A stretch of 46,052 nt of DNA from Chloroflexota bacterium (GTDB taxonomy: Bacteria > Chloroflexota > Limnocylindria > QHBO01). The DNA is taken from positions 1 to 46,052 of the forward strand of contig JACDEL010000012.1 in NCBI GenBank assembly GCA_013816405.1, given 5' to 3'. The notes under the pieces were generated by a model. That model had not been told where the DNA came from. It worked only from the letters and a program-made list of their open reading frames with translations, and made no database searches. Shown here one piece after another: positions 22,531-38,165 of this stretch. Each line of letters opens with the position of its first letter. The first letter of the stretch is position 1. Both the position numbers and the translations under genes were made by a program.

Positions 22531-22533
22531 GGC

Positions 22534-22657: not shown

Positions 22658-22663
22658 TAGACT
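22658..22663 (+). promoter_or_regulatory. -10-like hexamer of the 99-aa gene
   Basis: TAGACT ends 10 nt before the ATG at 22674. No Shine-Dalgarno and no clear -35. Confidence 0.4.
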
Positions 22664-22673
22664 TGCCGGCGAA

Positions 22674-22973: not shown

Positions 22974-23117
22974 GCGCGCCATTTGTGGACATCCGGTCCC
23001 CGCGAATGGCTTGATGTGGACAACTCGTTGCGCCCAGGCACCATCGGGCAATTGGGCGATGGGGAGACGGCCGCCGCGTCACCTCGAGGTATGCGGCTTG
23101 CCTGCGAAGGCCCCTGG
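22974..23117. other. Intergenic region with two DnaA-box-like sites
   Basis: Between convergent small genes. Contains TGTGGACAT (22984-22992) and TGTGGACAA (23015-23023); the second is the reverse of TTGTCCACA, an actinobacterial-type DnaA box. Confidence 0.4.
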
Positions 23118-23435: not shown

Positions 23436-23559
23436 GGTTGGGCGTACCTCCGAATCGCGGTAAGAAGAAGGTTCCCAAACGGGACCGATGATTGCGACCG
23501 ACCGAGGATAGGCGTCGGCGCCGAATGGTACGGGCCCAAACCAGCCTTGCGAAGGGGGT

Positions 23560-23613
23560 CTGTCCACCAACTTATCCACATTCGTTTCCACACGAAGGGC
23601 CCCGGGTGGACAT
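23560..23613. other. Cluster of DnaA-box-like sites
   Basis: Includes TTATCCACA (23572-23580), a perfect consensus DnaA box, with CTGTCCACC (23560-23568), GTTTCCACA (23584-23592) and the reversed TGTCCACCC (23605-23613). With the two sites near 23.0 kb this makes six related motifs in about 630 bp. Confidence 0.45.
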
Positions 23614-23654
23614 GCGCCGGTTCGACGGTGGAAAGGTCGCGCCGCGCCGCGTGG

Positions 23655-23660
23655 TAGGTT
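23655..23660 (+). promoter_or_regulatory. -10 element of the LLM oxidoreductase gene
   Basis: TAGGTT followed after 6 nt by the GTG start at 23667. Predicted transcription start is the GTG itself. Confidence 0.5.
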
Positions 23661-23666
23661 GGCGCC

Positions 23667-24554
23667 GTGGAGATCGGCGTGGTGGTGCCGCAGGGCTGGA
23701 CCGGCGAATACGACGGCTGGGAGCCGCGGCGCGCATGGGAGCGGACGATCGCGGTCACGCGCCAGGTGGAGCGCCTCGGCTTCGAATCGGTCTGGGTCTT
23801 CGATCATTTTCAGACCGAGCCCGAGCCGACCGATGAGCTGACCTTCGAGTCCTTCACGACGCTGGCCGCCCTGGCCGCCTCGACCGAGCGCGTGCGGCTC
23901 GGCCATGTCGTGATCTGCACGGCGTACCGCAACCCGGCCCTGACGGCAAAGATGATCGGCACCATGGACGTCATCAGCGGGGGGCGGATGGACCTCGGGA
24001 TCGGCGCCGGCTGGAAGGAGGACGAGTGGCGGGCGTATGGCTACGGCTTCCCGGACACGAAGACGCGCCTGGCGACCCTCGCCGACCACCTCGAGGTGAT
24101 CACTCGCATGCTGGGACCCGGCCGAGCAACGTTTGCCGGCACCTACGCATCCGTCACGGATGCTATCAATGTCCCACGCGGCCTCCAGGAGCCGCGGGTG
24201 CCCGTCATGGTCGGCGGCAACGGCCCGAACGTGACCTGGCGCCTGGCCGCCCGCTTCGCCGATGAGCTCAACCTCGACTGGCTGACCCCGGACGAGGTGC
24301 GGGAGGCCAAGCCAATCATCGCCTCTCGATGCGAGGAGATCGGGCGGGACCCCTCGACCCTGCGGCTGTCGGTGAACATCAGCCGATACGTCTTCAAGGA
24401 CGCCGGACCGTCGCGAGTCGAGCTGCTGGCTGGCTATCGCGAAGTCGGCGTCAACCGCGTGATGGGACTGATCCAGGAAACCGCCTCCAGCGACGAGCCA
24501 CTCGAATCGCTGGCTTCCGACGCACTCGCCGCCGGATGCACTCTCGCAGAATGA
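23667..24554 (+). CDS. LLM-class F420-dependent oxidoreductase
   Basis: 295 aa luciferase-like monooxygenase fold. N-terminal strand IGVVVPQG, then RQVERLGFESVWVFDHF, the LGHVVICTAYRNP segment and GRMDLGIGAGWKEDEWRAYG, diagnostic for F420-using LLM enzymes. The VPVMVGGNGPNVTWRLAARF motif precedes the C-terminal part. Reduces or oxidises an unknown substrate with F420 (FMN cannot be excluded). GTG start with no Shine-Dalgarno and a -10 just upstream, so probably leaderless. Monocistronic. Confidence 0.9.
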   Translation: MEIGVVVPQGWTGEYDGWEPRRAWERTIAVTRQVERLGFESVWVFDHFQTEPEPTDELTFESFTTLAALAASTERVRLGHVVICTAYRNPALTAKMIGTMDVISGGRMDLGIGAGWKEDEWRAYGYGFPDTKTRLATLADHLEVITRMLGPGRATFAGTYASVTDAINVPRGLQEPRVPVMVGGNGPNVTWRLAARFADELNLDWLTPDEVREAKPIIASRCEEIGRDPSTLRLSVNISRYVFKDAGPSRVELLAGYREVGVNRVMGLIQETASSDEPLESLASDALAAGCTLAE

Positions 24555-24671
24555 CTCCGCTGGGGGAGATCCCCGCGAGGTTGTTACGAATACTCACGTG
24601 CCACGACCGTTCGGCAATGGGCGGAATGATGCGCCAGCCGCAATGTCGCGTACTACGGTTAGGACGTCCCA

Positions 24672-24705
24672 CTGCTAAGTGGACCGGGAGTCGTCCACCA
24701 AGCAG
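24672..24705 (+). promoter_or_regulatory. Leader stem-loop directly before the CHRD-like gene
   Basis: CTGCT/AGCAG (24672-24676 / 24701-24705) and GTGGAC/GTCCAC (24679-24684 / 24693-24698) form an interrupted stem ending 2 nt before the Shine-Dalgarno AGGAG (24708-24712). It could control translation or mRNA stability. Confidence 0.4.
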
Positions 24706-24718
24706 ATAGGAGACACAC

Positions 24719-25348
24719 ATGAAGATCCGAACCGCCAAGATCGCTGGAGGCTTGCTCGTCGCCGCGGCGTTTGTCGTCGCGACGGCACCCGTTTTCGCCT
24801 CCGCCGGCGCATTCAGCGCCAGCCTCGCGCGGGTGCCGAACAAGGCCCCCCATGCCAGCAGTTCCGGACTGAATGTCACCGGCTCGGCCACCCTGACCCT
24901 CTCCGGAGTGAATCTCACTGCCCACATCACGGCCTCCGGGCTCAGCCCGAACCTGCCGCATCTGATGCATATCCATGGCGTGATCGGAGCGCAGAATGAC
25001 TGCCCGAGCAAGAGCGCCGACAGCAACGGTGACGGGCTCATCGATACGCTCGAGGGGCTGCCGTTCTATGGTCCTGTACTGGTGACCTTCTCGACCAGCG
25101 GCGACACAAGCCCCGGTGCAGCCTTCAACCTCAGCGCCGCTGTTGTGGCTGACAGTTCCGGGAACCTGAATTACACGCGGACGTTCAAGATCCCTTCGGA
25201 CGTCGCGGGCGACTTGGGCAATCTGCACATCGTGATCCACGGAGCCGACCTCAACCGCAACGGTGTCTATGACGGCGCGCTGTCGTCGCTCGGCATGGGC
25301 ATCCCGCTCGAGGCCGAGCTGCCAGTCTCGTGCGGTGCCATCAACTGA
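24719..25348 (+). CDS. Secreted CHRD-like protein with two calcium-loop motifs
   Basis: 209 aa. Sec signal peptide ending near VFASAGA (about residue 30). The mature part shows a CHRD-type beta fold with the HLMHIHG segment. Two EF-hand/dockerin-like loops are visible: DSNGDGLID from residue 101 and DLNRNGVYDG near the C-terminus, each with Asp/Asn ladders suited to Ca2+. Two cysteines (NDCPS and VSCGA) may form a disulfide. Function unknown; extracellular. Start fixed by AGGAG 6 nt upstream. A hairpin terminator follows. Confidence 0.8.
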   Translation: MKIRTAKIAGGLLVAAAFVVATAPVFASAGAFSASLARVPNKAPHASSSGLNVTGSATLTLSGVNLTAHITASGLSPNLPHLMHIHGVIGAQNDCPSKSADSNGDGLIDTLEGLPFYGPVLVTFSTSGDTSPGAAFNLSAAVVADSSGNLNYTRTFKIPSDVAGDLGNLHIVIHGADLNRNGVYDGALSSLGMGIPLEAELPVSCGAIN

Positions 25349-25370
25349 CTGACGTAACGGAATTCCAGGA

Positions 25371-25402
25371 GGGACACCGCCCGGGCTACCGGACGGTGTC
25401 CC
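25371..25402 (+). terminator. Hairpin terminator after the CHRD-like gene
   Basis: GGGACACCG (25371-25379) pairs perfectly with CGGTGTCCC (25394-25402) across a 14-nt loop. Only a short mixed T tract (TACTT) follows. Confidence 0.55.
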
Positions 25403-25481
25403 TACTTGCGCCCCGTCGTCGGAAGACGCTGCTGCGGCCTTGGCCAATTGAAGCTACCGTATCCCTCCTCGCGGCCGAAGG

Positions 25482-26432
25482 ATGACTACCTTGACGATTC
25501 CCGTTTTCAAGCCAGCCGAGAAGCTCCTCGCCGAGCTGGAGCCAGCCGCGGAGCAGCTCCTCAACCGCCACCTTGGGATGGCGAAAGAGTGGTTCCCGCA
25601 CGACTACATCCCGTACGCACTCGGACGGGATTACGACAAGGATCCCTGGACGCCAGATCAACCGCGCATCAGCGGCGTCGCCCAGATCGCGTTCGAGGTC
25701 AACCTGCTGACCGAGGACAATCTTCCCAGCTATCACCGCGAGATTCACCGCATGTTCGGCGCGGGTGATGGTGCATGGCTCAACTGGGTGAACCGATGGA
25801 CCGCGGAAGAGGGACGGCACGCCATCGTGCTGCGCGATTACCTGGTCGTGACGCGCAATATCGACCCGTACGCGCTTGAGCGCGGGCGCATGAATCAGCT
25901 GCAGATTGCGTACCACCACGACGATGGTGGCAACGTCCTGCGTGGCCTGGCCTACGTCGCCTTCCAGGAGCTCGCAACGCGGATCAGTCACCGCAATACC
26001 GGCCGATACTCCTCCGATCCGGTGGCTGATCGGATCATGACCCGCATCGCGTCAGATGAGAACCTGCACATGATCTTCTATCGCGACATCCTCTCCGAAG
26101 CGATCAAGATCGATCCGTCCGCTGCGGTCCATGCGATCGCCGATGAGATCACCGATTTCCAGATGCCGGGCGCCGGAATGGTGAACTTCACGCGGAAGGC
26201 CGCGCAGATCGCCAAGTCGGGCATCTATGACCTGCGCGTCCATCACGACGAGGTGATCTGGCCGCTCTTGAACCACTGGGGTGTCTTCGAGCTTGCCAAC
26301 CTGGACCGCTCAGCCGAGCTGCGTCGCGAGGAGCTGTCTCGATTCCTGGGACGTCTTGACGCCCAGGCCTCGCGATTTGAGGCCAGGCGAGCCAAAGGCG
26401 CAGACGCAGGTGCGTGGATGCCTCCCGAATAG
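25482..26432 (+). CDS. Soluble acyl-ACP desaturase (FA_desaturase_2)
   Basis: 316 aa ferritin-like diiron enzyme. Metal ligands are readable: E78 in TEDN, E110-x-x-H113 in EEGRH, E163 in FQELATR, and E193-x-x-H196 in SDENLH, the two ExxH pairs of stearoyl-ACP desaturases. Introduces a cis double bond into acyl-ACP using O2 and reduced ferredoxin. No membrane segment. Bacterial copies are known mainly from actinobacteria and some Chloroflexota. Monocistronic; the neighbouring region downstream is rearranged. Confidence 0.93.
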   Translation: MTTLTIPVFKPAEKLLAELEPAAEQLLNRHLGMAKEWFPHDYIPYALGRDYDKDPWTPDQPRISGVAQIAFEVNLLTEDNLPSYHREIHRMFGAGDGAWLNWVNRWTAEEGRHAIVLRDYLVVTRNIDPYALERGRMNQLQIAYHHDDGGNVLRGLAYVAFQELATRISHRNTGRYSSDPVADRIMTRIASDENLHMIFYRDILSEAIKIDPSAAVHAIADEITDFQMPGAGMVNFTRKAAQIAKSGIYDLRVHHDEVIWPLLNHWGVFELANLDRSAELRREELSRFLGRLDAQASRFEARRAKGADAGAWMPPE

Positions 26433-26701
26433 GTGCGCCTGCAAGACGTTGGCACTCCGGCGCACATGCCTCGCCTTGAAAGGCGCACGAACCCCGGGCG
26501 CCAACACGCGCCGCCGGACCGGCCAGCTCTCCGACTTCACCATTCCTTCCAGGGGAAGGTACGTATCGCTGCGAGGACGGTCCGAGTCCTGCCACGTGGT
26601 GATGTGAGGTCTGGTGCGGTACGTACTAGTCCTGTCCAGGCGCCTGCTAGCAAGTGGGGACCGAGACGTTTCGCACGGCTAGGCTGCTCATAGGCCGGTG
26701 C

Positions 26702-26719
26702 GACGTTGACGGCGCGAAG
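26702..26719 (+). repeat. 18-bp direct repeat, copy 1
   Basis: GACGTTGACGGCGCGAAG; identical copy at 27628-27645, 926 bp away. The pair brackets the zinc-ribbon gene and most of the frameshifted membrane gene. Confidence 0.75.
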
Positions 26720-26736
26720 AGCGTGCGCGCTATAGT
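26706..26736 (+). promoter_or_regulatory. Promoter of the zinc-ribbon gene
   Basis: TTGACG (26706-26711), 19-nt spacer, TATAGT (26731-26736). The spacer is longer than optimal. Confidence 0.45.
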
Positions 26737-26766
26737 CCAAATCTCGGCAGGGGACGAGGAGGGAGG

Positions 26767-26976
26767 GTGACCGTACGCGGTGATCGAATCCATGCACAGG
26801 TCCAAGGGTCCCAAATCGTGCCCTCGGATCGCGCTTGTCGCTCGTGCGCTCTCTCGGTAGAGGTTCTCCTGGTGCAGCCGATTCGTGTCGGGTGCCAGCA
26901 TTGCGGGCGAACATTCCTGATTCTTGCCCGGAGCCGATTCTCGAAAAGGTTCGCGGCCAGCCATATCTCTCTCTAG
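26767..26976 (+). CDS. Small double-CxxC (zinc-ribbon-like) protein
   Basis: 69 aa from GTG 26767, preceded by a long purine-rich Shine-Dalgarno (GAGGAGGGAGG). Two CxxC pairs, C24/C27 (ACRSC) and C43/C46 (GCQHCGRTF), spaced 15 residues apart, fit a one-zinc ribbon. Basic, no membrane segment. Could bind DNA, RNA or protein. The membrane gene begins 22 bp downstream, so the two probably form one unit. No family recognised; the start and motif support a real gene. Confidence 0.6.
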   Translation: MTVRGDRIHAQVQGSQIVPSDRACRSCALSVEVLLVQPIRVGCQHCGRTFLILARSRFSKRFAASHISL

Positions 26977-26998
26977 TCGCGGGGAGCGAGGCGCGGGG

Positions 26999-27678
26999 AT
27001 GATCAACGTCGAGGTCACCGAACAGGCGGGCGCGCGTCGGGTGCTGATGGTGCGCTTTCCGCGAGCCAAGATCGCCATCGGGACGGGTATGGTCACTGTG
27101 ATCGTCTTCGGTCTTCCCTGGCTCGCCGTTCCCTTCATGAACCCTGGGCAGGGTCGGTGGCCGGGTTGGGCCCTGAGCCTCGCCGTCGTCCTCGCTCTCG
27201 CCCTCCTTTTCGGCTGGTACCTCGTCCTACTCTTGATCACCGCCGTGCGGGGCGGCTTCTTCGGGCTCACGCCGACTAGCGTGCTCATCGACACCGGCCT
27301 GAGCTCGGTCCACATCCCCTGGACCGCGATCAGCGGCACGTCGGAGGACACCCTGGAGGGCAAACACCGCTCATATCCCGTTCTGCGCCTGTCTCTCCGC
27401 AGGGACTACAGAGTGCCGGCTGGCCCTGGCCTGCCGCCCTCTCGCCCGTCCTCCTGGGCTCCTCGAGGCGCAAACTGCGCATCCTGGCTTGGTGGTTTCA
27501 ACCAGTCCCCGTCGCCCGGATGGTGACAATCGTCCGCTATCTCGCCAGCCATCCCGAAGAGCGCCCGAGGATCGGCGACGCGGACCCTGACGCATGGCTC
27601 CATGCCCCGCTGACCGTGGGCCAGGGTGACGTTGACGGCGCGAAGGGCTCAAGCGGCGCCGGCCCCGGCGATCGGTAG
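26999..27678 (+). pseudogene. Frameshifted two-helix membrane protein
   Basis: Starts ATG 26999. Residues 1-140 form a coherent protein: two long hydrophobic helices (residues about 27-48 and 58-82), then GLTPTSVLIDTGLSSVHIPW, similar to bacterial PH-like/YdbS-type membrane proteins. After about 27410-27425 the first frame becomes Pro/Ser-rich and ends at 27526, while another frame carries on with a plausible tail (RILAWWFQPVPVARMVTIVR and YLASHPEERPRIGD) to a TAG at 27676-27678. This indicates a single indel in the DNA or an assembly error. Confidence 0.6.
27628..27645 (+). repeat. 18-bp direct repeat, copy 2
   Basis: Identical to 26702-26719. Lies in the 3' end of the frameshifted membrane gene. 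No promoter-like -10 follows it at normal distance. Confidence 0.75.
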
Positions 27679-27848
27679 CGTGCAGGCGGCCCCGGGTAGT
27701 GTCTCAGTTTGAGGGTGCGTGCTCTTCGTAGGGTTCCTGCTCTTCGGCCACCTTGTCGAGCAGCTCAAGCCGCTCGCGTTCGGCTTCCCGAGCGCGTACC
27801 GCCCGTCTCACGGTGACATTGCCGCCCGTGACGTGCGGATAGTGGGAG

Positions 27849-28022
27849 TCAGGTTCGTCGCTGCGACCAGACCTGCAAAACGCCTCCGGCGATAAGGGCC
27901 ACGATGCCCAGGACAATCACCGGTAAATCTCGATCGCCGGTCGACTGGTCCATCATTCCGACCACGATCAGAAAGATACCGAGCACCGCCAGAACGGCGG
28001 TAATTCCGGATCCCCAGTTCAT
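27849..28022 (-). CDS. 57-aa two-helix membrane protein
   Basis: Start ATG 28022 with GGAGGG 8 nt upstream. Two hydrophobic helices (residues about 8-24 and 34-51) joined by a short polar loop (MMDQSTGDRD), ending in the basic tail SQRRT. Small proteins of this shape are common stress or housekeeping membrane proteins without known role. The stop of the methyltransferase remnant overlaps its start codon. Confidence 0.65.
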   Translation of the reverse strand: MNWGSGITAVLAVLGIFLIVVGMMDQSTGDRDLPVIVLGIVALIAGGVLQVWSQRRT

Positions 28023-28187
28023 ATCGATCTCCCTCCTACGAGATGACGCGAGTGCATCTTAGTTGCGCAGGCCAGCAGCTGGGCATCGGTGGCATTGCCG
28101 GACTCATCGCGGAAGGTGACGTTGTAGTCGCGGTTGGAGTTGAAGGGCGGGTCGAGGTAGACCAAGGTCGACGGCGGCATCGGGCAG
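28019..28187 (-). pseudogene. DNA methyltransferase remnant with frameshift
   Basis: Short scrap of an N4/N6 DNA methyltransferase. One frame reads LPDAAVDL and, after one extra base at about 28163, the next reads VYLDPPFNSNRDYNVTFRDE and on to DAQLLA; together these match the region around the catalytic DPPF motif of type III-like or stand-alone modification enzymes. Homology ends at about 28070; after it the frame runs into the start of the 57-aa gene. The AdoMet motif and target-recognition parts are missing. Non-functional. Confidence 0.65.
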
Positions 28188-28189
28188 GC

Positions 28190-28580
28190 TCCAAGCTGTA
28201 GATTCCCGGATCCTCGAAGTCGATCGGGACTGATGTGCCGAAATACGGTGCCGCGACCACGGCGATGTTGGAAACGGGTCGAAACCCGGGACGCGATTCG
28301 GTCCGCAGACGAATCTGGAACCGACTGCTCCCGCTCGAGGCCGGCGTGAGCTCAAGCCAAAGGTAGAAGTCGACGGTACCGGTCCCGATGATCAGGGAGT
28401 CGCCGACCGCGTCCTCCGGGCGAGGCATGCCGTCGGGCCAAGGATCGTCACGGCTCCCTGGATCGAGCGCATAACTGAGCCGGTTTCGCTCGGGGTCCCA
28501 CGCTCGGGACTACAGCCGATAGGCCGGACCCGGATTGACCAGCCCCAGCCTCTTCATGATCTTGCGCCACTCGTGTGCGC
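28190..28580 (-). pseudogene. Unidentified interrupted frame
   Basis: A single minus-strand frame runs from just below the AAA/TPR gene to the methyltransferase scrap, broken by one TAG at 28510-28512. Before the stop it reads HEWRKIMKRLGLVNPGPAYR; after it, WDPERNRLSYALDPGSRDDP and later VDFYLWLELTPASSGSSRF, both with natural composition. No start codon follows the preceding stop. Likely a fragment of a larger protein. Family not recognised. Confidence 0.4.
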
Positions 28581-28593
28581 TAACCGATCAGCT

Positions 28594-30483
28594 TCAACCC
28601 TCGACGGTTGAATGCCGGATGCCGTCCAGTCTCGCGCGGATGCGCACCGGGGTAACGATGTCGCCCTTCTGCTCGTACAGGGCGATGGCCTGGACCAGGG
28701 CATCCGCCGCCTCATCGGCTCGCCCGGCGACCAGCAGGACGTCGGCCAGATCGGTCATGACGTCGGCGCGGTCGATGAGGAAGTCTGTTCCAGCGAGCAG
28801 CGCCACGGCCTCCCGGGCGAGCGGTTCTCCTTCGTCGACTCGTCCCTGGTGTGCGCGTACCCGGGCGAGCGAGCCCTTCCCAACGGGGGTGGCAAGTGAC
28901 GTTCCGGCCGCATCGGCGAACTCGGCGTATGGCTCCGCATCATTCCAGCGGTCCTGGGCGCAGAGCGCCCGGGCGAGGAATGCGTTGAGGAAGGGAGGCC
29001 TCTCGCCTTTGGCCGCGAGCGCATCGAATCCCTCCCTCAGAACCCGCTCAGCCGCGGCTGGCTCGCCCGCGACCATCTCGATGTCATAGGGAATTTCAGC
29101 GAAGAATTCGAACTGCCCGCGTTGCCCAGTGTCGAAAAAGAAGGCGCGGGATCGTTTCGCAAACTCACGGGCCCGCTCGAAGTCACCGCGCCGAGCGGTC
29201 AGGTGCCCCAAGGCGTGGAACATTGAGGCTTCCACGCTCCGCTGGTTCGCGTACTGAGCTATCACCTCTTCGCAGCGGCGAATCCCCGCGTCCGAGGGGG
29301 TGGGCCCCCGGACGATGTCTCGGCTCAGGGTGAGGAAGGCCTCGTACTCCTCAGGGAGGTCCCCCGCCTGGCGCGCGTGCTGAAGTACCTCTTCGATGGC
29401 CGCCTCCTCGTTGCCAGCCTGACCATTCATCCACGCGATTTGCCCGCGAAGGCTCCAGGCGCGAGCAAGCCCCCGCTCATCTGCGGCCCGTCCAAAGGTG
29501 GCCATCGCCCAATCGGCGTCCTTGACCGCCTGGTCGATGTCAGTCAGGCGCTCCAGCTTCCACCGCCAGCGCTGAACGAGCGCGTGGGCGAGGAGACGGT
29601 CGTTCGACACGGCGCGAGCGTGTTCGATCGCCTCGGCCCATATCCGATCCTTCTGGTCTTCATCCTGAACGACCGACGCGAGGTCCAGGCTGAGCTCGAT
29701 CCGGACCGGATCATCGGGAGGCAGCAGCGACAACGCACGGGAGAAGAGGTTTGCGGCCGCTGGGTAATCCGACCGGGCGAATGCTCGTGTTCCCGCCGCC
29801 GAGAGTCGCACCGCCGCGCGATGGGCGACGGCCCGATGTTCATCGGTCAGCGCCCCGAGCTCTTCGCGGTAGAGGTACGCCCGCTCGAGGTGATAGCCAA
29901 GGATCTCGTCCTGCTCCTCGGCACGGTCTCCGGCCGCCCGTTCCAGCCAGTTCGCGAAGCGCTCGTGAAGCGAGGCACGCATCGCCTTGGGCAGCGCCCC
30001 GTACGCGGATTCCAGGACCAGGATGTGGCGGAAGCGGAAAGCGTCCTCTCCCGCCAGCGTGGATCGGTCCGGCCGAATAAGGTCCTTGCGCACCAGCGCC
30101 TTCAGGAGCTCGTCGATCCGCCCCGTCCCCGATTCGGAGCCAACGTCCGAAACGGCCCCCCGGTAGAAGACCTTGCCCACCACAGAGGCGCGTCCGATCA
30201 GGTCGCGTTCCTCCGGCTCGAGCCGATCGAGCCGGGCCGACAAGAGAGCGGCGATGGTGGGGGGCACGGTGACCGTCACCTTCTCGTTCGTCGCCACCCA
30301 GCGGCCGTCCACGGATTGGATCAGGCCGTCATCGATCAGCATGGCGAGCATCTGCTCGACGAAGAGAGGGTTGCCGCCGGCGGCCTGCACAATCCTGCTG
30401 CTGACATCCTCGGCCAGATCGGTCGAGCCGACCAGGTTCGCGATGAGAGAGGGTGCGGGATGCCGTAGCAGCGCTGACGGCGC
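28594..30483 (-). pseudogene. AAA-ATPase/TPR regulator, N-terminally truncated
   Basis: C-terminal part (about 630 codons) of a large regulator of the adenylate-cyclase/LuxR-like AAA plus TPR class. The frame opens after a stop at 30484-30486; the homologous region begins near SLIANLVGSTDLAEDVSSR, followed by the hallmark AAGGNPLFVEQML, the winged-helix portion (ALLSARLDRLEPEERDLIG, FRFRHILVLESAYGAL) and about ten TPR-like repeats. The Walker A and B motifs and any cyclase domain expected upstream are absent. A GTG at 30390 could start a shorter product. Probably a dead gene. Confidence 0.65.
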
Positions 30484-30691
30484 TCATTCCGACGCTTATG
30501 ACTCAGGAGCCGACTGCCCGGTCACACCTTTGGGCGATCAGTAAGAGGGGCGCTTTCGCCGTCAAGCTCGACCTAGCCCGGCAGGCCGTGGAGGCCTATG
30601 ACCGGAGCGAATCCGAGCCTAACTAGAGCACATAGCTGGGCCTGATTCGCACATGGAGCCACGCTCGGGAGCACAGCGCTAGGGCCGGGGT
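30484..30691. other. Junction segment, no gene seen
   Basis: About 208 bp between the truncated regulator and the tRNA scrap. A short plus-strand frame (AISKRGAFAVKLDLARQAVE) ends at a TAG near 30625 and could be another fragment. Nothing else recognised. Confidence 0.3.
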
Positions 30692-30732
30692 GCATGTCAA
30701 GCAAGTGCTCTAACCAGCTGAGCTAGCCGCCC
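30692..30732 (-). pseudogene. 5' half of tRNA-Val(GAC)
   Basis: Reads GGGCGGC-TA-GCTC-AGCTGGTTA-GAGC-A-CTTGC-TTGACAT-GCA, i.e. acceptor 5' strand, intact D-arm, anticodon 5' stem and loop with anticodon GAC. After GCA the sequence leaves the tRNA: the anticodon 3' stem is cut to 3 bp and no T-arm or acceptor 3' strand follows. Marks a rearrangement junction at about 30691. Confidence 0.8.
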
Positions 30733-30811
30733 GCGGGGCCCGCATTGTGCCGGAGCAGCGCGAAGGTGGTCAACCGCGCCCCGTCGCCTATCGGCGTTTT
30801 AGGTCCATGCA

Positions 30812-31018
30812 TCAAGGCCCCGCGCGGCGCCCGACCAGGTGTGCGGCGAGCGCCACGCCACCGATTGCCAGCAGGAGGACGAGCACCTCCCCACCGGCGC
30901 TGCTGGCGAATGCGAAGGGAGCGTAGATCCACCAGCCCGAGAAAAGGAAGAAGAGGGTCAGCACTCCGGCGGCGAGCCAGAGCACCATCGCGATCACGGA
31001 ACGTATGGTCCAGACCAT
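30812..31018 (-). CDS. 68-aa two-helix membrane protein
   Basis: Two hydrophobic helices (about residues 7-33 and 45-62) separated by APFAFASSAGG, basic C-terminus (HLVGRRAGP). Starts 5 bp after the cupin stop and is likely the last gene of a three-gene unit. Function unknown. Confidence 0.7.
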   Translation of the reverse strand: MVWTIRSVIAMVLWLAAGVLTLFFLFSGWWIYAPFAFASSAGGEVLVLLLAIGGVALAAHLVGRRAGP

Positions 31019-31023
31019 GTCAG

Positions 31024-31356
31024 CTACCAGTCAATCGTCACGCAGGATTCGTCGCCGACCACCGTGGCGAGGTGCCCGGGCGAGATCTCGAGGTAGTCGC
31101 CCGCCTGGCCGACCACCTCGGTCCCATCGTCCATCAGGTAGCGGATGCGGCCGGACAGGATCACTTCGCGATGCTCCATCGGGCAGGACGGGTCGTCGCC
31201 CATCGGCTTGATGTACTGCTCCCAGCTCCAGCCCGGCTTCATCACGGAGCGCATGACCACGGTGTCGCCGACCTGGACGATCTCCGTGCGGCTCCCGTCG
31301 TCGGTCGGGTAGACCTCGTCCGGCTCGTTGAACGAGCGCCGTTCGATCCCGGCCAC
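31024..31356 (-). CDS. Cupin-domain protein
   Basis: 110 aa from GTG 31356; a longer open frame overlaps the upstream gene and is unlikely. Cupin barrel: MKPGWSWEQYIKPMG, then SCPMEHREVILSGRIRYLMD (motif 1, with E/H/E residues) and GQAGDYLEISPGHLATVVGD (motif 2 with PGH). Probably binds a metal or small ligand; no enzyme class assignable. Third from the end of a small minus-strand unit after the large operon. Confidence 0.8.
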   Translation of the reverse strand: MAGIERRSFNEPDEVYPTDDGSRTEIVQVGDTVVMRSVMKPGWSWEQYIKPMGDDPSCPMEHREVILSGRIRYLMDDGTEVVGQAGDYLEISPGHLATVVGDESCVTIDW

Positions 31357-31369
31357 GTCTATCCGCCGC

Positions 31370-31642
31370 TCACCGACGCCAGTCGGTGGAATACGGAACC
31401 ACGCCGAGCACGCGATGGATCTCGGCCCGATAGCGCACGCCGGACGGATGCCGTTCCAGCCAGCGCAGGTAGTCGGGATCGACGCGCGCAAGCTCCTCCA
31501 GCGTGGAGCCGGCGTAGTGCCCGAAGTCGAGCCTCGTCGGATCGAACGATGCGGTCAGCGGCGGCTCATGCCCGGGACCGACGGGGTGAAGGGGATCCTC
31601 GTCAATAGGAAACGCCTGAGGGTCGTCGGGGTGCCCGGCCAT
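31370..31642 (-). CDS. DUF3820/Exo-X C-terminal-like small protein
   Basis: 90 aa. The N-terminal 35 residues are Pro/Asp-rich and likely disordered. The core LDFGHYAGSTLEELARVDPD plus YLRWLERHPSG matches the small domain (FGKYKGxTLxELxxxDPxYLRWL) found in DUF3820 proteins and at the end of some exonuclease X homologues. It may bind nucleic acid. A GAGG Shine-Dalgarno is upstream and TAGGAT (31690-31685, minus) may be the -10 of this unit. Confidence 0.75.
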   Translation of the reverse strand: MAGHPDDPQAFPIDEDPLHPVGPGHEPPLTASFDPTRLDFGHYAGSTLEELARVDPDYLRWLERHPSGVRYRAEIHRVLGVVPYSTDWRR

Positions 31643-31732
31643 GCCAATCGCCTCTTTCGGGTCGCCATCGGGCGACGTGCCGCGATCCTACGCTCCGCAA
31701 GGGGAAGTTGCATGACGTTCCCGCGTGCTCGG

Positions 31733-33043
31733 TTAGCGGTTTGGCAGGTGTCCGCGGCGTCGCGTCTGGACAAAGGTCGTCGCGCGCCGGCCGACCGCGA
31801 TCCGCAGCAAAGCTGTCGGCACGACCACCAGCCAATGCGATAGGAAGAGGAAGCCCCTGCCGGCCCGACCGATGAGCTCAGGCCCATGCTCCCCATGCGC
31901 CGCCAGGCCCGCGAGGGCGAGCAGGAAGCTGCCGATCCCATACCCCAGGAACAGGGAGGCCGGCACGGTCCAGTCGGCTGGGCGCGGCAGCGGGATGGTC
32001 AACAGGCTGGCGATGATCGTCGTCACGAAGAGCGGCGGAATCACGAACTCGCCGGTGAAGGCGAGGAAGTCGAGCTTCCGGCCAAGCGGCACCTCCGACG
32101 CGCGCAACAGGCCGGGGCCGAGCTCGATCAGGCGCCGGATGCTGCCTTCCGCCCAACGCAACCTCTGTCGCCACAGGCCGGGGAGCGTCATCACCGCCTC
32201 CTCTCCGACCTCCACCTGCGGGGCCAGGGCGATCCGCTCCCCCGCCGCCACCAGTCGAGTCGAGAGCTCCAGGTCCTCGGTGAGCGCGGTCGGATTCCAG
32301 CCACCGAGCCGCTCGAGGGCACCGCGACGCACGAACATGCCGTTGCCGCGCAGCTCGGCACTGCCGTCGGTCGCGCGGCGGCCGCACTGGCTCGCCATGT
32401 CCATCACCAGCTCCTCATCCTGTGCCGCCGCCAACCAGCCGTGGTCGCGGTTGCGCGCCCGTCGCTGGACCTGCATGGCGGCCGCGTCCGGATCGGCCTG
32501 CCAGGCATCCATGACCCGCGTCACGAAATCGGGGGAGACACTGGCGTCGGCATCCAGCACGCCGATCACCTCGCCTCGTATCTCGGACTGCGCGAAGCTG
32601 AGCGCCGCAGCCTTCATGGCGGGGCCGTCGCCCGCCTCACGAAACACGACCCGCAGCCGATCCGGATGCATCGCAGCGGCCTGGCGAGCCAGCGGCCCCG
32701 TTGCATCAGTCGAGCCGTCATCGACGACCACGATGTCGAAACGCGGCTCGCCGCCCAGCGCGTAGTCCTGTTCCGCGAGCGATGCGAGCGTGGCGGCGAT
32801 GACCGGCTCCTCGTTCCGGGCTGCGACGAGGAGCGTGACCCAGGGTCGACCGCCATCTGTCGAGTTGGCGCCGTGCGCGGCGCGCATGGCCTGGTAGCCG
32901 CGGAGCGCGAGATAGGCGACGTACACCAGCGACACGGCGATGGCGGCCTGCAATGCGCGCGCCACGACGGCGAAGGTGATCGCCAGCGAGGCAATGACGG
33001 CGGAGGCGATGAGGATGGAGGCCGCCACCACCCGGGTCATCAT
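31733..33043 (-). CDS. Membrane-bound GT2 glycosyltransferase (processive type)
   Basis: 436 aa from ATG 33043, overlapping the MFS stop by 4 bp. Two N-terminal membrane helices, GT-A domain with VVVDDGSTDATGPLARQ, the DXD as DADAS, acceptor/catalytic TED in ALTEDLELS and QxxRW as QRLRW, the set found in cellulose, hyaluronan and PNAG synthases. Three to four C-terminal membrane helices follow. Polymerises or transfers a sugar at the membrane; sugar unknown. Last gene of the nine-gene operon. Confidence 0.88.
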   Translation of the reverse strand: MMTRVVAASILIASAVIASLAITFAVVARALQAAIAVSLVYVAYLALRGYQAMRAAHGANSTDGGRPWVTLLVAARNEEPVIAATLASLAEQDYALGGEPRFDIVVVDDGSTDATGPLARQAAAMHPDRLRVVFREAGDGPAMKAAALSFAQSEIRGEVIGVLDADASVSPDFVTRVMDAWQADPDAAAMQVQRRARNRDHGWLAAAQDEELVMDMASQCGRRATDGSAELRGNGMFVRRGALERLGGWNPTALTEDLELSTRLVAAGERIALAPQVEVGEEAVMTLPGLWRQRLRWAEGSIRRLIELGPGLLRASEVPLGRKLDFLAFTGEFVIPPLFVTTIIASLLTIPLPRPADWTVPASLFLGYGIGSFLLALAGLAAHGEHGPELIGRAGRGFLFLSHWLVVVPTALLRIAVGRRATTFVQTRRRGHLPNR

Positions 33044-34446
33044 GGTGGTTCCGGGCCGGCGAGATTGGTGCGATGCAGCCCGCCCGCCCTGTTGTGTCGC
33101 CACGAGAGAATCCCGAGCACAAGCGTGACGAGTCCCAGGATCGCCATCACCACCGGGATCCCGGCGCCCTTGACGAGGAGGTTCACCAGGTCGGCGGCAG
33201 CCGGCGCGACGAGCACCGGGAGGAAGGATGCGACCGACAGCAGGGTGTTGAGGATGCCGAAGATGCGGCCGCGGACCTCCACCGGCAGGTCCTCCTGCAG
33301 GGCGGTCTGGGCCGGGATGGCGACGAACGCGTATTCGACGCCAGCCGTGATGGCGATCACCACCACGAGTGCGATCAGCGACAGGAGGGGGCTGAGCGCG
33401 GCCGGCAGGTTGTTCTCGATCGGCTGCAGGGCGGGCGAAAGGAAGACGGTGATCGGCTTCACCAGTGCAAGGGCGATGAGCGTCAACCCCATCGCCACCA
33501 ACCCGCAGTCAATCAGGAGCCGCCGGGGGAGGTTGGCGCCATACGCGTTCAGGAAGAGGATGCCGAGGACGGCGCCCATCCCCGCCGGACCCATGACGAA
33601 GAAGAAGTCCTGTGGACGCAGCAGGAGGATGTCGGTCGCGAAGCCGGGCCCGATGGCACCCATCACCGCGATCAGACTGGCTGCGATCCCGAGGTAGGCC
33701 AGCGACCAGGCGATCGGTCGATGGCTGCGCACGAAGGCAATCCCCTCCTTGAGCTGGTCGAAGACCACCGTGAACGCTTGCCTGGTCTCCTTCACGCCGA
33801 TCTCCGCGTGCTTCTCCGGCGGGACACTCGGCAGCGGCACGATCGCGAGCGCCGCAAGGCCGAACATCACGGCCACCACGATGAACACGGCGTCCACGCC
33901 GAGCGTCGTGAGCAGCAGCGGGCCCAGGAAGCCGAAGCCGATGGCGAAGGTCGCGTTGATCGTCAGCACGAAGGTCGAATTGGCTGCCATCAGCTGCCGC
34001 CGATCGACCAGTCGAGGGATCGCCGTCAGCTCGGCGGGCACGAAGAAGGCGGTCACGGTGGCAACCAGAAGGTTGATCAGGAAGATCAGGCCGACGTTGC
34101 TGCCAACCAGCAGGAAGAGCACGATCCCGCCGGCGCGCAGCAGGTTCGAGGCCAGCATGATCAGGCGCGCGTCGCTCCGCTCGACCAGGACCCCGGCTAT
34201 GGCGCTGAAGGCGACGGCCGGCACCAGGAAGGTCAGGATCAGGACGGCGTTGGCGGTGTTCGAGCGGGTGGCCAACACCACGGTGGCCATGAGGCCGGCC
34301 AGCACCATGTTGCTGGCCAGCTGGCTGAGCACCTGCGCCACCCACAACAGCACGAATGAGCGGTTCGCAAAGACGGAGCCGGACGGCTCGGAGACCGGCA
34401 GGTCGGCCGGCAGGTCGACGTGTGGAGGCAGCTCCAGGTGGGCCAT
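33040..34446 (-). CDS. MFS transporter (exporter-type, MFS_3-like)
   Basis: 468 aa, about 12 membrane helices with a polar loop in the middle (near EKHAEIGVKETRQAF). N-terminal cytoplasmic stretch of about 28 residues before FANRSFVLLWVAQVLSQLAS, the typical opening of EntS-like and macrolide-exporter MFS proteins. Likely a proton-coupled exporter of a small molecule. Starts 3 bp after DUF951 and overlaps the GT2 gene. Substrate unknown. Confidence 0.88.
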   Translation of the reverse strand: MAHLELPPHVDLPADLPVSEPSGSVFANRSFVLLWVAQVLSQLASNMVLAGLMATVVLATRSNTANAVLILTFLVPAVAFSAIAGVLVERSDARLIMLASNLLRAGGIVLFLLVGSNVGLIFLINLLVATVTAFFVPAELTAIPRLVDRRQLMAANSTFVLTINATFAIGFGFLGPLLLTTLGVDAVFIVVAVMFGLAALAIVPLPSVPPEKHAEIGVKETRQAFTVVFDQLKEGIAFVRSHRPIAWSLAYLGIAASLIAVMGAIGPGFATDILLLRPQDFFFVMGPAGMGAVLGILFLNAYGANLPRRLLIDCGLVAMGLTLIALALVKPITVFLSPALQPIENNLPAALSPLLSLIALVVVIAITAGVEYAFVAIPAQTALQEDLPVEVRGRIFGILNTLLSVASFLPVLVAPAAADLVNLLVKGAGIPVVMAILGLVTLVLGILSWRHNRAGGLHRTNLAGPEPP

Positions 34447-34449
34447 CGG

Positions 34450-34656
34450 TCAGGTAGCCGCCTGTGGGCCACGCTCGAGGTGCGCCGTGAAACGGCGCTC
34501 GACGTCCAGGCGATCCATCAGGATCCGGTGACCACAACCCTCACACACCAGGCCGATGTCGGCGCCGATGCGTGTCACCCGCCATTCACGGCTGCCGCAC
34601 GGGTGAGCCTTGCGTAGCCCGATCCTGTCGCCGATGCGCAGGTCGACCGCGGCCAT
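34450..34656 (-). CDS. DUF951 protein
   Basis: 68 aa. Family pattern: GDRIGLRKAHPCGSREWRV, then GADIGLVCEGCGHRILMDR. Cysteines C20, C38 and C41 suggest a small metal-binding (rubredoxin-like) fold, with one ligand lacking. DUF951 proteins are common in Firmicutes and Chloroflexota near ribosome or chromosome-segregation genes; role unknown. Starts 2 bp after the TldE stop and ends 3 bp before the MFS gene. Confidence 0.88.
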   Translation of the reverse strand: MAAVDLRIGDRIGLRKAHPCGSREWRVTRIGADIGLVCEGCGHRILMDRLDVERRFTAHLERGPQAAT

Positions 34657-34658
34657 CG

Positions 34659-36032
34659 CTAGTCCTGGGCCTCCGCCCCGGTTGCTCCGGTGAACGCGAA
34701 CTTCGCCAGCCGCAACGCAGGCACCCGCGCGTTGATGCCGGAGTACTCCGCGGCCACGAGGCGCGTCTCCGAGCCGATCGCCTCGATGGTACTGAAGGCC
34801 TCGGGGATCGACTGCGTGAAACGCAGGTTGCGAATCGGTCGGCTGATGCGGCCATCCTCGATCAGGAACGTGCCGTCCTTGGTCATACCGGTCAGGATGC
34901 CTCTCTTGGCATGGACGATGTTGACGTAATGGAGGCGGGTCACCCACACGCCGCGCTCGATCCCGGACAGCATCACCTCCTTGGCGCTGGATCCGGGGGA
35001 CATGAACAGGTTCCAGGCCATTGGGCCGAAGGCATTCGGTGCCGGCAGCCCATGACCGGTCGACGCGACGCCGGCGCGCGCCGCTGTCGCGGTGTCGTGG
35101 ACCACGGCGCGCGCGACGCCATCACTGATCAGGTCGACACGCTGCTTGGGGACCCCCTCGTAGTCGATGGCCGTCGGCAGTCCGAGCGGATCCAGCCCAT
35201 CGTCCCAGATCGAGACGTTTGGGCCCATGATCTGCTGGCCGAGGTCCATGAATGAGCGCCCCTCCTCGACCGCCAGGGCGGAGAAGCCCATCCAGGACAG
35301 GTATTCGAGGATGGTCGCGACGGCGTACTCCTCAAGAATGACCGGGTACTCGCCGGGCTCGAGGTCAACCGCATCGTGGCTGCGGGATGCCTTATCAGCC
35401 GCCTCCTCGCCGACGGCCGCGGGGTCGATTGCGCGAATGTCAGGGCCGGTCGCCTGTGCGTAGCCGGACCCGCCGTCGCCGTCCATCATCACGGTCAGCA
35501 GCTTGGCCTGGGTGACGCTGTGCGTATTGCGCATGCCGCGCGAGTTTGCAACCGCGAGGGTGGCCGTCTCGGTCGAGAAGGCTCCGCTGGCTTCGAGGTG
35601 CCCGGCATCACCGGCAGCGATCACGGCCCGGGCGCCGACAGCGCGCAACTCCGGATCGGCCCGGGCAGTGGCGGCCACGAAGCCAAGGCCCGGGTCCGCG
35701 GTGGACGGGCTCGGCGCCGCCAGCGGTGCGCCATTCGGGTTCGGCGTTGCCAGCGCCAGTGTCGCCGAGGCGCGCTCAACCACCTCGCGCAACCCCTCAT
35801 CGTCGAGCCGGTTGGTGCTCGCTACGCCGGTCCGCATGTCGCGCACCAGCCGGATCCGCAAGGTGGCATCGCGCTCCGCCACGTTCTGGTGGATTCGCGA
35901 GTTGGCGAAGCGGGTCAGCGCAGCGCTGCGTTCGGTGAAGATCGCCTCCGCCTGCGCATCGGTTGCCAGCGAGAGGGTGTGGCTCAGCAGCGACTCGAGG
36001 GCCGCGGAATCCCAGCCGAGCGGCTCTACCAT
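34659..36032 (-). CDS. TldE/PmbA-like metalloprotease subunit
   Basis: 457 aa, PmbA/TldE family, the non-catalytic partner of TldD. Family landmarks: an early TRFANSRIHQNVAERDATLRI strand, the late MSPGSSAKEVMLSGIERGVW segment and GRISRPIRNLRFTQSIPEAF near the end. It lacks HExxxH, as expected for TldE. TldD/TldE heterodimers cut unstructured peptides and trim RiPP leaders in E. coli microcin B17 processing. Overlaps the tldD stop by 7 bp. Confidence 0.9.
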   Translation of the reverse strand: MVEPLGWDSAALESLLSHTLSLATDAQAEAIFTERSAALTRFANSRIHQNVAERDATLRIRLVRDMRTGVASTNRLDDEGLREVVERASATLALATPNPNGAPLAAPSPSTADPGLGFVAATARADPELRAVGARAVIAAGDAGHLEASGAFSTETATLAVANSRGMRNTHSVTQAKLLTVMMDGDGGSGYAQATGPDIRAIDPAAVGEEAADKASRSHDAVDLEPGEYPVILEEYAVATILEYLSWMGFSALAVEEGRSFMDLGQQIMGPNVSIWDDGLDPLGLPTAIDYEGVPKQRVDLISDGVARAVVHDTATAARAGVASTGHGLPAPNAFGPMAWNLFMSPGSSAKEVMLSGIERGVWVTRLHYVNIVHAKRGILTGMTKDGTFLIEDGRISRPIRNLRFTQSIPEAFSTIEAIGSETRLVAAEYSGINARVPALRLAKFAFTGATGAEAQD

Positions 36033-37474
36033 CGACCCACCCCGACCTCGACACCACGGAAGCGCGCTGGGGCGGCGCCGTGGCCAACGCCATGCGTCTG
36101 CATGGGCTCACCCTTGCCGCAGTTGGGGACGCCCCACAGCGTCCATTCCGACAGGCCGCAGATCGCGTCACAGCTTCCCCAGAAGCGCGGCGTGATGCCG
36201 GTGTAGGTAGGGTTCTTGACCATCTGCGTCAGCCTCCCGTTCCTGATCAGCCAGCCGATCTCCGTCCCGAACTGGAAGTTGAGGCGTCGGTCGTCGATGC
36301 TCCACGAGTGGTTGGTGCTGACGAAGAGGCCGTCCGCCGTGTCCGCGATAAGGTCGTCGAGCGTGCCGGCCTCGCCTGGCCGCAGGTTGACATTGGTCAT
36401 GCGGATGAGCGGAATCACGTTCCAGCCCGAGGCTCGGCTGCTGCCCATGCTGCGGCGACCGATGATCGGAGCCGTCTCCCGGCTGGTGAGATAGCCGACC
36501 AGCCGTCCGGCCGTCACGATCGGCACCTTCTGGGCCGCCACTCCCTCGTCGTCGAAGCCGAAGGTGCCGAGCCCTCCTGGCGCGGTCGCATCGGCCTCCA
36601 TGTTCACGATCTCGCTGCCGTACTGGAGCTGGTCGAGCTTGTCGAGAGTCAGGAAGCTCGTCCCCGCGAAGCTAGCCTCCATGCCGAGCACGCGGTCGAG
36701 CTCGATCGGGTGGCCACACGACTCGTGCACCTGGAGCGCCAGCTGCGGCGAGTCGACGATCAGGGTCATCTGGCCCGACGGGCATTGCGGTGCATCCAGC
36801 AGCGCGACCGCCTCCTCGGCGATGCGATGCGCGTTGTCGGCCAGGTGAAGGTCGCGGATCGCCTCGAAGCCGCCGGTCACGTGCTGACCGCCCGCCGACT
36901 GCGGGTAGCTGCGGCGCTGTACCTCATGTTCGTTGAAGGCCATCGCCTCGATCCCCGCCCCTGAGTCGACGATCTCCTGCTCGATGCGGGCGCCCTCGGT
37001 CGAGGCGAAGGTCTTTCGCTCACGACCGAACTCCATGCTGCTGGTGCGCAGGGTGACTCCCGCGACCTTGCCCATCACCGCATCGGCTTCGAACAGCAGG
37101 CGCAGCTTCTCGTCGAGCGGCACCCCGAAGGGGTCCTCGCGATATGGGGTGTGGTACACCGCCACCGCGGGCGGAGAGTCATCCAGCACGATCGGCTCGC
37201 GCGTCGCCAGGCCACTGGCCCGCGCGATGGCCACCGCCTCGCGGGCTGTACGCTCCACCTCGGCGCGTTCCATGCGCGAGCTCCCAGCGAATCCCCAGGC
37301 TCCGTCAAGCAGCACCCGGACGCCGAACCCGGCCGACCGGTGGGATCTCGCCTCGGCGAGATCCCCGTTCTTGACGGTCAGGGACTCGGTCGTCCGTTCG
37401 ACGATCCGCATATCGGCATAACCCGCGCCAGCGCTGTGCGCGACATCGAGGGCCAGGTCAATCAACTCCTGCAT
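36026..37474 (-). CDS. tldD: TldD-like zinc metalloprotease
   Basis: 482 aa from ATG 37474, preceded by GAGG; the longer upstream frame is not coding. Zinc site HESCGH (H250, E251, H255) with a cysteine inside, as in the family, and the C-terminal FWGSCDAICG and NCGKGEP segments that complete the active site. Works with TldE to degrade or trim extended peptides in the cytoplasm. Lies 20 bp after DUF881 gene 2. Possible substrates: cellular peptides or a modified peptide; no precursor gene was recognised here. Confidence 0.93.
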   Translation of the reverse strand: MQELIDLALDVAHSAGAGYADMRIVERTTESLTVKNGDLAEARSHRSAGFGVRVLLDGAWGFAGSSRMERAEVERTAREAVAIARASGLATREPIVLDDSPPAVAVYHTPYREDPFGVPLDEKLRLLFEADAVMGKVAGVTLRTSSMEFGRERKTFASTEGARIEQEIVDSGAGIEAMAFNEHEVQRRSYPQSAGGQHVTGGFEAIRDLHLADNAHRIAEEAVALLDAPQCPSGQMTLIVDSPQLALQVHESCGHPIELDRVLGMEASFAGTSFLTLDKLDQLQYGSEIVNMEADATAPGGLGTFGFDDEGVAAQKVPIVTAGRLVGYLTSRETAPIIGRRSMGSSRASGWNVIPLIRMTNVNLRPGEAGTLDDLIADTADGLFVSTNHSWSIDDRRLNFQFGTEIGWLIRNGRLTQMVKNPTYTGITPRFWGSCDAICGLSEWTLWGVPNCGKGEPMQTHGVGHGAAPARFRGVEVGVGRW

Positions 37475-37493
37475 AATTTCCTCATTCGACCGG

Positions 37494-38165
37494 TTATTCG
37501 ACCGGCTTACCGACAGCCGGCTCCAGCGAGAGCGCGCTCGCCGGCAACCGCACAGATGCCGCCTGATGGATCTGGATGGTCGCCTTGATGAACAGCTCCA
37601 GCTGGGAAATGATCCCACCTGGGCGCTCCATCGCGCCGAGCAGTCCGTCCGGTGACCCGATCGCCTGCAGCGTGAACCTCTCTCCCACCTCGATCCCGTC
37701 GAGCTCGATCGCCCGAGGACCCTCGATCGCCACCGAGCGAGCCGTGATCCGCACGCCATCGACGGCGATGGCCTCGGCGCCCGCGTTGCGAAGCTCGTTG
37801 ATCAGGTCGTTCACCGCGATCGCGTCGAGGTCGCCATCGACGTCCATCACGATCCCCTGCCCGTCGACCGGCGCCAGGCCGCCGAAGGCGGTGATGCGCC
37901 GGAGATCCTCGCGGCTGACCTGGAGGGCGCTCTCACCCTGTGGACCGGACACCTCGTATTGCCGCAGCTGCTCGCGGATGTCGGCCAGGCCCGAGCGCAG
38001 CTCCCGATTGCGCGCTGTGAGTGTCTCGATCAAGGTCGACAGCTCGGTCGCCGACAGGCGGCTGATGGCGATCGGGCGCGCCTGGGAGTTCAGCTGTCCC
38101 ACCCCGAGCAGGCCGATCAGCAGGGCCACGGCGAAGAGCGTGGCCTGGGCAACACGACTCTTCAT
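37494..38165 (-). CDS. DUF881 protein 2
   Basis: 223 aa. One N-terminal membrane helix (TLFAVALLIGLLGVGQL), a coiled-coil stretch (about residues 40-75), then the DUF881 domain with VDGQGIVMDVDG and LINELRNAGAEAIAVDG, followed by GERFTLQAIGSPDGLLGAM. Single-pass with the domain outside the cell; DUF881 folds resemble SpoIIIAH/YlxW-type proteins of monoderms. Start overlaps the previous stop by 1 nt (TGATG). Confidence 0.88.
   Translation of the reverse strand: MKSRVAQATLFAVALLIGLLGVGQLNSQARPIAISRLSATELSTLIETLTARNRELRSGLADIREQLRQYEVSGPQGESALQVSREDLRRITAFGGLAPVDGQGIVMDVDGDLDAIAVNDLINELRNAGAEAIAVDGVRITARSVAIEGPRAIELDGIEVGERFTLQAIGSPDGLLGAMERPGGIISQLELFIKATIQIHQAASVRLPASALSLEPAVGKPVE

What the first reader, a model, noticed from the sequence alone, without database searches (positions are those of the whole stretch)
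30484..30732. tRNA-Val(GAC) cut after its anticodon loop
The minus strand holds positions 1 to about 41 of a tRNA-Val(GAC) with perfect D-arm and anticodon, then changes abruptly. The 3' half is not found anywhere else in the window. Integrases normally leave a complete tRNA by duplicating the 3' end, so loss of the 3' half with the 5' half intact points to a different rearrangement or an assembly join.
Basis: seen in the sequence. Interest (0 to 1): 0.55.

Follow-up and report, generated by a model that had tools for sequence, protein, structure and literature searches.

The report
Orphan tRNA half left by mobile islands
The broken tRNA gene is the leftover front half made when mobile DNA islands jumped into the middle of a valine tRNA gene in an environmental Chloroflexota bacterium, each island bringing a replacement half so that one working gene remains; relatives show islands stacked on both sides of that gene.

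Summary
Window 30732-30691 (-) equals positions 1-42 of tRNA-Val(GAC), 42/42, E 5.5e-15. Copies broken at the same place occur in 11 of 177 genomes of the class, so it is no artefact. It is best read as the left end (attL) of an integrative island of the rarer polarity: the island carries promoter plus tRNA 5' half and displaces the native 5' half. The same genome has an intact tRNA-Val(GAC) at C8:10940-11016 and an orphan 3' half at C8:18109-18156. An empty-site pair (G045/G082) shows such an event. G131 has a complete tyrosine integrase beside its restored tRNA. The locus is two-sided: G011 has one 5' half and four 3' halves around one intact gene. Islands with 5' fragments are known but rare (159 of 3919 in Islander); my few searches found no report of two-sided stacks. 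The window's island is a remnant: no integrase hit on C78 or C8, and its far end is lost in a rearrangement or contig join between 24.5 and 30.7 kb.

The parts
30691..30732 (-). Orphan 5' half of the native tRNA-Val(GAC), positions 1-42 (attL)
   Evidence: 42/42 to C8:10940-10981, E 5.5e-15
30691..30703 (-). Shared core TGCTTGACATGCA (tRNA positions 30-42), the overlap of orphan 5' and 3' halves; crossover inferred in the 7-nt anticodon loop
   Evidence: BLAST matches of 5' halves end at 39-42 and of 3' halves start at 30-32
30733..30792 (-). Upstream region taken as native, with a sigma-70-like promoter by eye (TTGACC 30773-30768, 18 nt, CACAAT 30749-30744)
   Evidence: Sequence; lacks the GAGCACGAA motif of other upstream regions; match to G001 reaches only 20 nt upstream and is weak there; promoter consensus recalled, not scanned
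30629..30690 (-). Island end E that replaces the 3' half
   Evidence: Profile built without this copy hits 30687-30629 at E 3.5e-4; the 74-nt, 89% match to G002 across the junction has its 7 mismatches and one gap in the about 30 nt past the cut
28468..28516 (-). Second E copy, same orientation, with no recognisable tRNA half before it
   Evidence: Profile E 9.5e-10; 73% direct repeat 28465-28527 / 30626-30688
28594..30390 (-). 598-aa ORF with C-terminal TPR repeats between the two E copies, probably 5'-truncated (inference)
   Evidence: Pfam TPR_12 1e-8
24524..30690 (.). Lower-G+C region joining the tRNA-Val flank to a region that lies on another contig of G002; holds the island remnant and an unresolved join
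   Evidence: window 10700-24523 matches G002:C5:76605-90939, 30821-39179 matches G002:C4; G+C per kb 62.8-66.3% from 24 to 31 kb against 67.1-71.5% in 20-24 kb and 31-34 kb
30821..39179 (.). Native 5' flank of the tRNA-Val locus
   Evidence: 85% to L043:8364-1 (G002:C4 from 614000) over 8377 columns; parts of it also lie beside intact tRNA-Val in G001, G004 and G009

Best explanation
The half tRNA is attL of a tyrosine-recombinase island that integrated in the anticodon loop of tRNA-Val(GAC) with the less common polarity. The island's attP carries a promoter and tRNA positions 1-42 on one side and a conserved end E on the other. Crossover in the 7-nt loop leaves the native promoter plus native 5' half stranded in front of E (this window), and rebuilds a working tRNA at the other end from the island's promoter and 5' half plus the native 3' half (contig C8:10940). 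Mirror-image islands that carry the 3' half insert at the same loop and leave orphan 3' halves downstream. Repeated insertion into the one rebuilt gene stacks old islands outward on both sides. Shown by sequence: the halves, the intact gene, the empty-site pair, and an integrase next to the restored tRNA in a relative. Inferred: crossover position, catalysis, expression from the island promoter, that C78 and C8 are the two sides of one locus, and the order of events in this genome.
For: Intact gene plus orphan 3' half in the same genome. G045 versus G082: native upstream plus 5' half at 169/210, restored tRNA at 92/98, downstream flank at 82.7% over 1722 columns, with 1.6 kb inserted between the 41-nt repeats. 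G131: 5' half at 1181, complete 321-aa integrase (PF00589 1.3e-18, N-terminal SAM domain 6.1e-8) reading away from the restored tRNA at 10506. G002 tRNA-Leu(TAG): 5' half 42/42, integrase, and intact gene 12 kb on. Upstream motif: absent before the window's half, present before C8's intact gene. End E. Both flanks (window side and C8 side) lie around one intact tRNA-Val in G009:C2 and in G002:C4. Stacks: G140 three 5' halves, G049 and G081 two each; G011 four and G015 four 3' halves.
Against: None of the 14 integrase hits in our genome lies on C78 or C8, so its own island is a remnant. The two ends lie on different contigs and the far end in the window is lost. The only complete integrase found at tRNA-Val (G131) goes with a different end sequence (E2; 4 of 15 tails), so the recombinase of E1 is inferred. 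4 of 26 3'-half heads (G002 x2, G004, G133) gave no E hit; the 22 that did were in the profile. Related integrases beside tRNA-His and tRNA-Leu (G000) and tRNA-Lys (G011) had no 5' half in the stretches I fetched. No circular form or activity was tested.
Confidence: 0.87

Rival explanations
1. Assembly artefact: two unrelated contigs were joined at 30691.
For: The genome is a draft of 102 contigs, and a synteny break lies a few kb away.
Against: 5' halves broken at the same place occur in 10 other genomes, and a profile made without the window copy finds the end after the cut. The genome-contig scan gave 8 contigs from at least four differently labelled assembly sets, but by length these are the same contigs as 8 of the 11, and five bear one project label, so it is not a further independent sample.
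Confidence: 0.04
2. A second tRNA-Val(GAC) gene that lost its 3' half by random deletion or insertion.
For: The genome does hold another, different tRNA-Val(GAC) on C52.
Against: The cut lies within 3 nt of the same place in 15 halves from 11 genomes. The window flank lies beside the intact tRNA-Val in G001 and G004. An empty site is shown for the same kind of event in G045/G082.
Confidence: 0.04
3. One composite element: an island with E at both ends and a whole tRNA-Val inside inserts in the gene and leaves a 5' half on one side and a 3' half on the other.
For: G002 and G011 have 5' half, intact gene and 3' half in that order on one contig (G000 on two); E before 3' halves is like the reverse complement of E after 5' halves.
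Against: Within the stretches fetched, 5' halves occur without any 3' half in G082, G049, G131 and G140, and a 3' half without a 5' half in G004. In G082 the restored gene keeps native downstream sequence. Loss by homologous recombination could mimic this.
Confidence: 0.12

Closest known systems
Islander-type genomic islands in tRNA genes with a 5' tDNA fragment (PMC4383910, passages read)
   Same: tRNA split by integration, island restores the gene, displaced 5' fragment upstream, tyrosine integrase, anticodon-centred sites common; 159 of 3919 islands have a 5' fragment
   Different: Here both polarities stack at one gene; in our genome and several others no integrase is seen in the units; Islander lists 4 cases in its 'Tandems >= 3' row
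pTN3-like archaeal integrases (review PMC8371274, passages read)
   Same: Restored tRNA is read from the element's integrase promoter
   Different: Archaea; per the review seldom met in bacteria; no two-sided stacks in the passages read
Tycheposons (seen only through passages of PMC10872708)
   Same: Cargo islands bordered by a tRNA gene, with a tyrosine recombinase
   Different: tRNA-Met and XerD there, 4-200 kb; defining features not tested here
Integron cassette arrays (recalled)
   Same: Repeated site-specific insertion at one fixed site builds an array
   Different: No attC, attI or IntI was searched for; the target is a tRNA gene and growth goes both ways

Membership tests
tRNA-gene genomic island with 5' fragment | Intact tDNA plus displaced 5' fragment in the same orientation, fragment upstream | tested here: met
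   G002, G011, G049, G082, G131, G140 on one contig; in G000 the two lie on different contigs
tRNA-gene genomic island with 5' fragment | Empty site in a relative | tested here: met
   G045 versus G082; for G000 itself no relative with a clean empty site was shown
tRNA-gene genomic island with 5' fragment | Tyrosine integrase in the island | tested here: inconclusive
   Met in G131 and for tRNA-Leu in G002; N-terminal fragment in G082 (SAM domain below Pfam's cut-off; 72% to the G131 integrase over 88 aa); none on C78 or C8 of our genome
tRNA-gene genomic island with 5' fragment | Excision and integration activity | not testable with these tools
   No cultures or reads
Integron | IntI and attC sites | not tested
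   No integron search was run
Tycheposon | Published gene modules and recombinase clade | not tested
   Primary paper not read

The most novel reading that the evidence does not exclude
One clade of small tyrosine integrases in this Chloroflexota class uses the near-symmetric anticodon stem-loop in either polarity, so that a single tRNA gene acts as a two-way stacking site: 5'-carrying islands pile up upstream, 3'-carrying islands pile up downstream, and the working tRNA, with a promoter renewed by each 5'-type island, stays in the middle, giving a time-ordered record of islands on each side.
Probability: 0.35. Interest if true: 0.62.

Novelty: new variant of a known kind. Interest (0 to 1): 0.46.

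Why it matters
It turns an apparent broken gene into a scar of mobile DNA and shows that 5'-restoring integration, rare in the survey I read, recurs in one bacterial class. If both polarities use one integrase clade, it becomes testable how an integrase chooses which half of a tRNA to carry, and what a promoter swap does to an essential tRNA. Orphan halves also mark island ends in draft genomes whose islands have no integrase left.

Tried and rejected
An intron or split (trans-spliced) tRNA was dropped: the intact gene exists and a shared island end follows the cut. Tandem duplication of one large gene as the cause was dropped: the 914-aa cyclase/AAA/TPR protein upstream of the intact tRNA on C8 has no significant BLASTP match to the 598-aa ORF. 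I at first took all of window 1-30690 for island; one search showed that 10700-24523 is found elsewhere in G002. A decayed 5' half at G002:C4:623791-623825 (83% over 35 nt) is probable only. By eye the G002 tRNA-Leu tail resembles E, but the profile did not hit that tail at E<=1 (it hit L224:10890-10949), so I make no claim from it. D-arm-like letters before the second E copy do not have tRNA spacing and are taken as chance (by eye). Tycheposon membership was not pursued.

Rows dropped and choices made: the split of the 15 tails into E1 (11) and E2 (4: G081 x2, G082, G131) was made by eye. For the E profile I left out the window tail, the four E2 tails and four heads that looked unlike E (G002 x2, G004, G133), leaving 32 of 41 ends; two E1 tails inside the profile still score weakly (G123 E 0.08, G140 at 17079 E 0.04). 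The pairs in the score comparison are not independent. The upstream motif GAGCACGAA (one mismatch allowed, last 35 nt) was picked after seeing the sequences. The tree holds 18 rows chosen from the integrases at hand, with two short fragments (G082, G109) left out and the G011 fragment filling 32% of columns. Halves by BLAST were scored only in the stretches fetched; class-wide counts are exact-pattern counts.

Full report
What is there. The minus strand of the window at 30732-30691 is identical to positions 1-42 of tRNA-Val(GAC); the intact copy is at C8:10940-11016 of the same draft genome (2.50 Mb, 102 contigs). Past the cut the sequence is not tRNA. ARAGORN and Rfam call nothing there. The genome also holds an orphan 3' half, positions 30-77, at C8:18109-18156. 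The orphan halves overlap by 13 nt, TGCTTGACATGCA, which contains the anticodon loop.

It recurs. In a well-assembled relative, G002 (same genus, 7 contigs), one contig has the window's 5' flank (85% over 8377 columns), a 5' half with a related tail, an intact tRNA-Val 5 kb on, and a 3' half 2 kb further. The 74-nt match across the junction is 89%, but its differences (7 mismatches, one gap) lie in the about 30 nt past the cut, so the profile result below is the better evidence for a shared end. An exact-pattern search of 177 genomes of the class found the 5' arm in 49; in 11 of them at least one copy is broken after the anticodon loop. The mirror search found the 3' arm in 43 of 177, with orphan 3' halves in 7. 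With BLAST in the stretches I fetched there are 15 broken 5' halves (11 genomes) and 26 orphan 3' halves with enough flank to examine (10 genomes; 10 of the 26 in G019, a 560-contig assembly with 6% contamination). A scan of one genome per species returned 8 contigs, all titled Chloroflexi bacterium; by length they are the contigs of 8 of those same 11 genomes. Placement in the class Limnocylindria is my recollection of GTDB names, not a result.

Polarity and empty site. G045 and G082 belong to one genus. G045 has flank, intact tRNA and flank in one piece. G082 has the same upstream flank ending in a 5' half (169/210 identical), 1.6 kb of insert, then an intact tRNA that continues into the native downstream flank (92/98 at the gene, 82.7% over 1722 columns beyond). 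So the insert restored the 5' half and displaced the native one. G131 shows a larger case of 9.3 kb (5' half 1181-1221, restored tRNA 10506) with a complete 321-aa tyrosine integrase whose start lies beside the restored tRNA and which reads away from it. Its empty-site support is split: G135 matches the upstream side, G130 and G133 the downstream side. In G002 a tRNA-Leu(TAG) shows the same plan: 5' half 42/42, integrase, intact gene. The same search found no 5' half near tRNA-His and tRNA-Leu in G000 or tRNA-Lys in G011, although related integrases sit at their 5' sides.

Whose promoter. A motif near GAGCACGAA, picked after seeing the sequences, lies just upstream of the intact genes of G000 (C8), G002, G009, G011, G016, G019 and (another family) G109, and of the 5' halves of G002, G011 and G019. 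The window's 5' half and the intact genes of G001, G004, G008, G014 and G015 lack it. I read the window half as the native, outermost one, and the working gene on C8 as sitting behind an island promoter. G009 has the motif but no 5' half in the stretch fetched. In the genus of G049/G140 the upstream region looks alike in most halves and intact genes, so the test is not informative there.

Two sides. 5' halves stack upstream: three in G140, two each in G049 and G081. 3' halves stack downstream: four in G011 and four in G015. G011 also has a 5' half. Within the stretches fetched, G004 has a (decayed) 3' half only, beside the native upstream gene; G082, G049, G131 and G140 have 5' halves only. 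Both kinds thus seem to occur alone, which favours two mirror-image island types over one composite element. The island end after 5' halves (E1, 11 of 15 tails) resembles the reverse complement of the end before 3' halves: mean local score 23.2 over 286 pairs, against 13.2 with shuffled heads, 13.4 in the wrong orientation, and 13.9 and 13.7 with sequence upstream and downstream of intact genes. The other 4 tails (E2) do not resemble it (14.1). A profile made without the window's copy hits the window tail (E 3.5e-4) and a second copy at 28516-28468 (E 9.5e-10); 4 of 26 heads, left out of the profile, gave no hit.

Recombinase. The integrases at the 5' side of tRNA-Val (G131), tRNA-His (G000), tRNA-Lys (G011) and tRNA-Leu (G000, G002), and a C-terminal fragment that begins about 45-60 nt downstream of a 3' half in G011, fall in one clade (100/100) apart from XerC/D and from the 10 other integrases in the tree (18 rows chosen). 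The sides follow from coordinates. That one clade serves both polarities rests on two fragments (G011, with 32% of columns in the tree; G109, by BLAST only) and is the weakest link. Our genome has 14 integrase hits, none on C78 or C8.

What is not settled in this window. 10700-24523 matches a stretch that in G002 lies on another contig (C5:76605-90939), while 30821 onwards is the tRNA-Val flank on C4. The join lies in 24524-30690, a region of lower G+C. C8:1-10939 likewise has only one match over 1 kb in G002, at C4:815280-819109. A true rearrangement within old islands and a contig misjoin are both possible. The far C8 flank (LigD-like region; name from its sequence, not from a family search) and the window flank lie on either side of tRNA-Val in G002:C4 and G009:C2, which is why I take C78 and C8 as one locus.

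Comparison with what is known. Islander (passages read) lists 3760 islands with 3' and 159 with 5' fragments, 2083 with anticodon-centred sites, and 4 in its 'Tandems >= 3' row. A review of archaeal recombinases (passages read) says restored tRNAs are read from the integrase promoter for pTN3-like elements and that this is seldom met in bacteria. A third paper (PMC9897764, passages read) says that tRNA gene fragments left by integration are widespread. So the window feature is a member of a known, rare kind; the two-sided stacking is the part I did not find in print. The literature searches were few: seen as listings apart from the papers named; (Limnocylindria, integrase, tRNA) returned none.

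Noticed in passing
G000:C52:5217-5293 (L204): A second, different tRNA-Val(GAC) on a 6.3-kb contig beside an integrase hit (C52:4449-4994); possibly carried by a phage or island.
   Followed up: partly
window 25809-25876 (-): Rfam ASdes (mycobacterial sRNA) hit, 58.8 bits, antisense inside a fatty-acid desaturase gene (25482-26432 +); may only reflect conserved desaturase coding sequence.
   Followed up: no
window 28066-28188: A short stretch with four 93% copies listed on G002:C2 and weaker ones in G009, a dispersed repeat of unknown nature.
   Followed up: no
G000:C5:24954-25007 and C7:7830-7888: Two further partial tRNA matches that share a stretch of sequence, one beside an integrase fragment (C5:25133-25297); perhaps the scar of another tRNA island.
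   Followed up: partly
window 22534-22610: tRNA-Arg(TCT) with a small gap in synteny to G002:C5 just beside it; the matching G009 contig C8 ends within a base of this tRNA, which may be another island site.
   Followed up: no
G011:C17:44132-44075; G019:C375: E-like island ends with no tRNA half next to them: one in G011 (E 6.6e-8) and three weak ones (E 0.0016-0.0069) in G019:C375; secondary sites, old stack members or chance.
   Followed up: no
G002:C4:167295-167342: An orphan tRNA-Val 3' half about 460 kb from the main locus, so a piece may have moved in the chromosome.
   Followed up: partly
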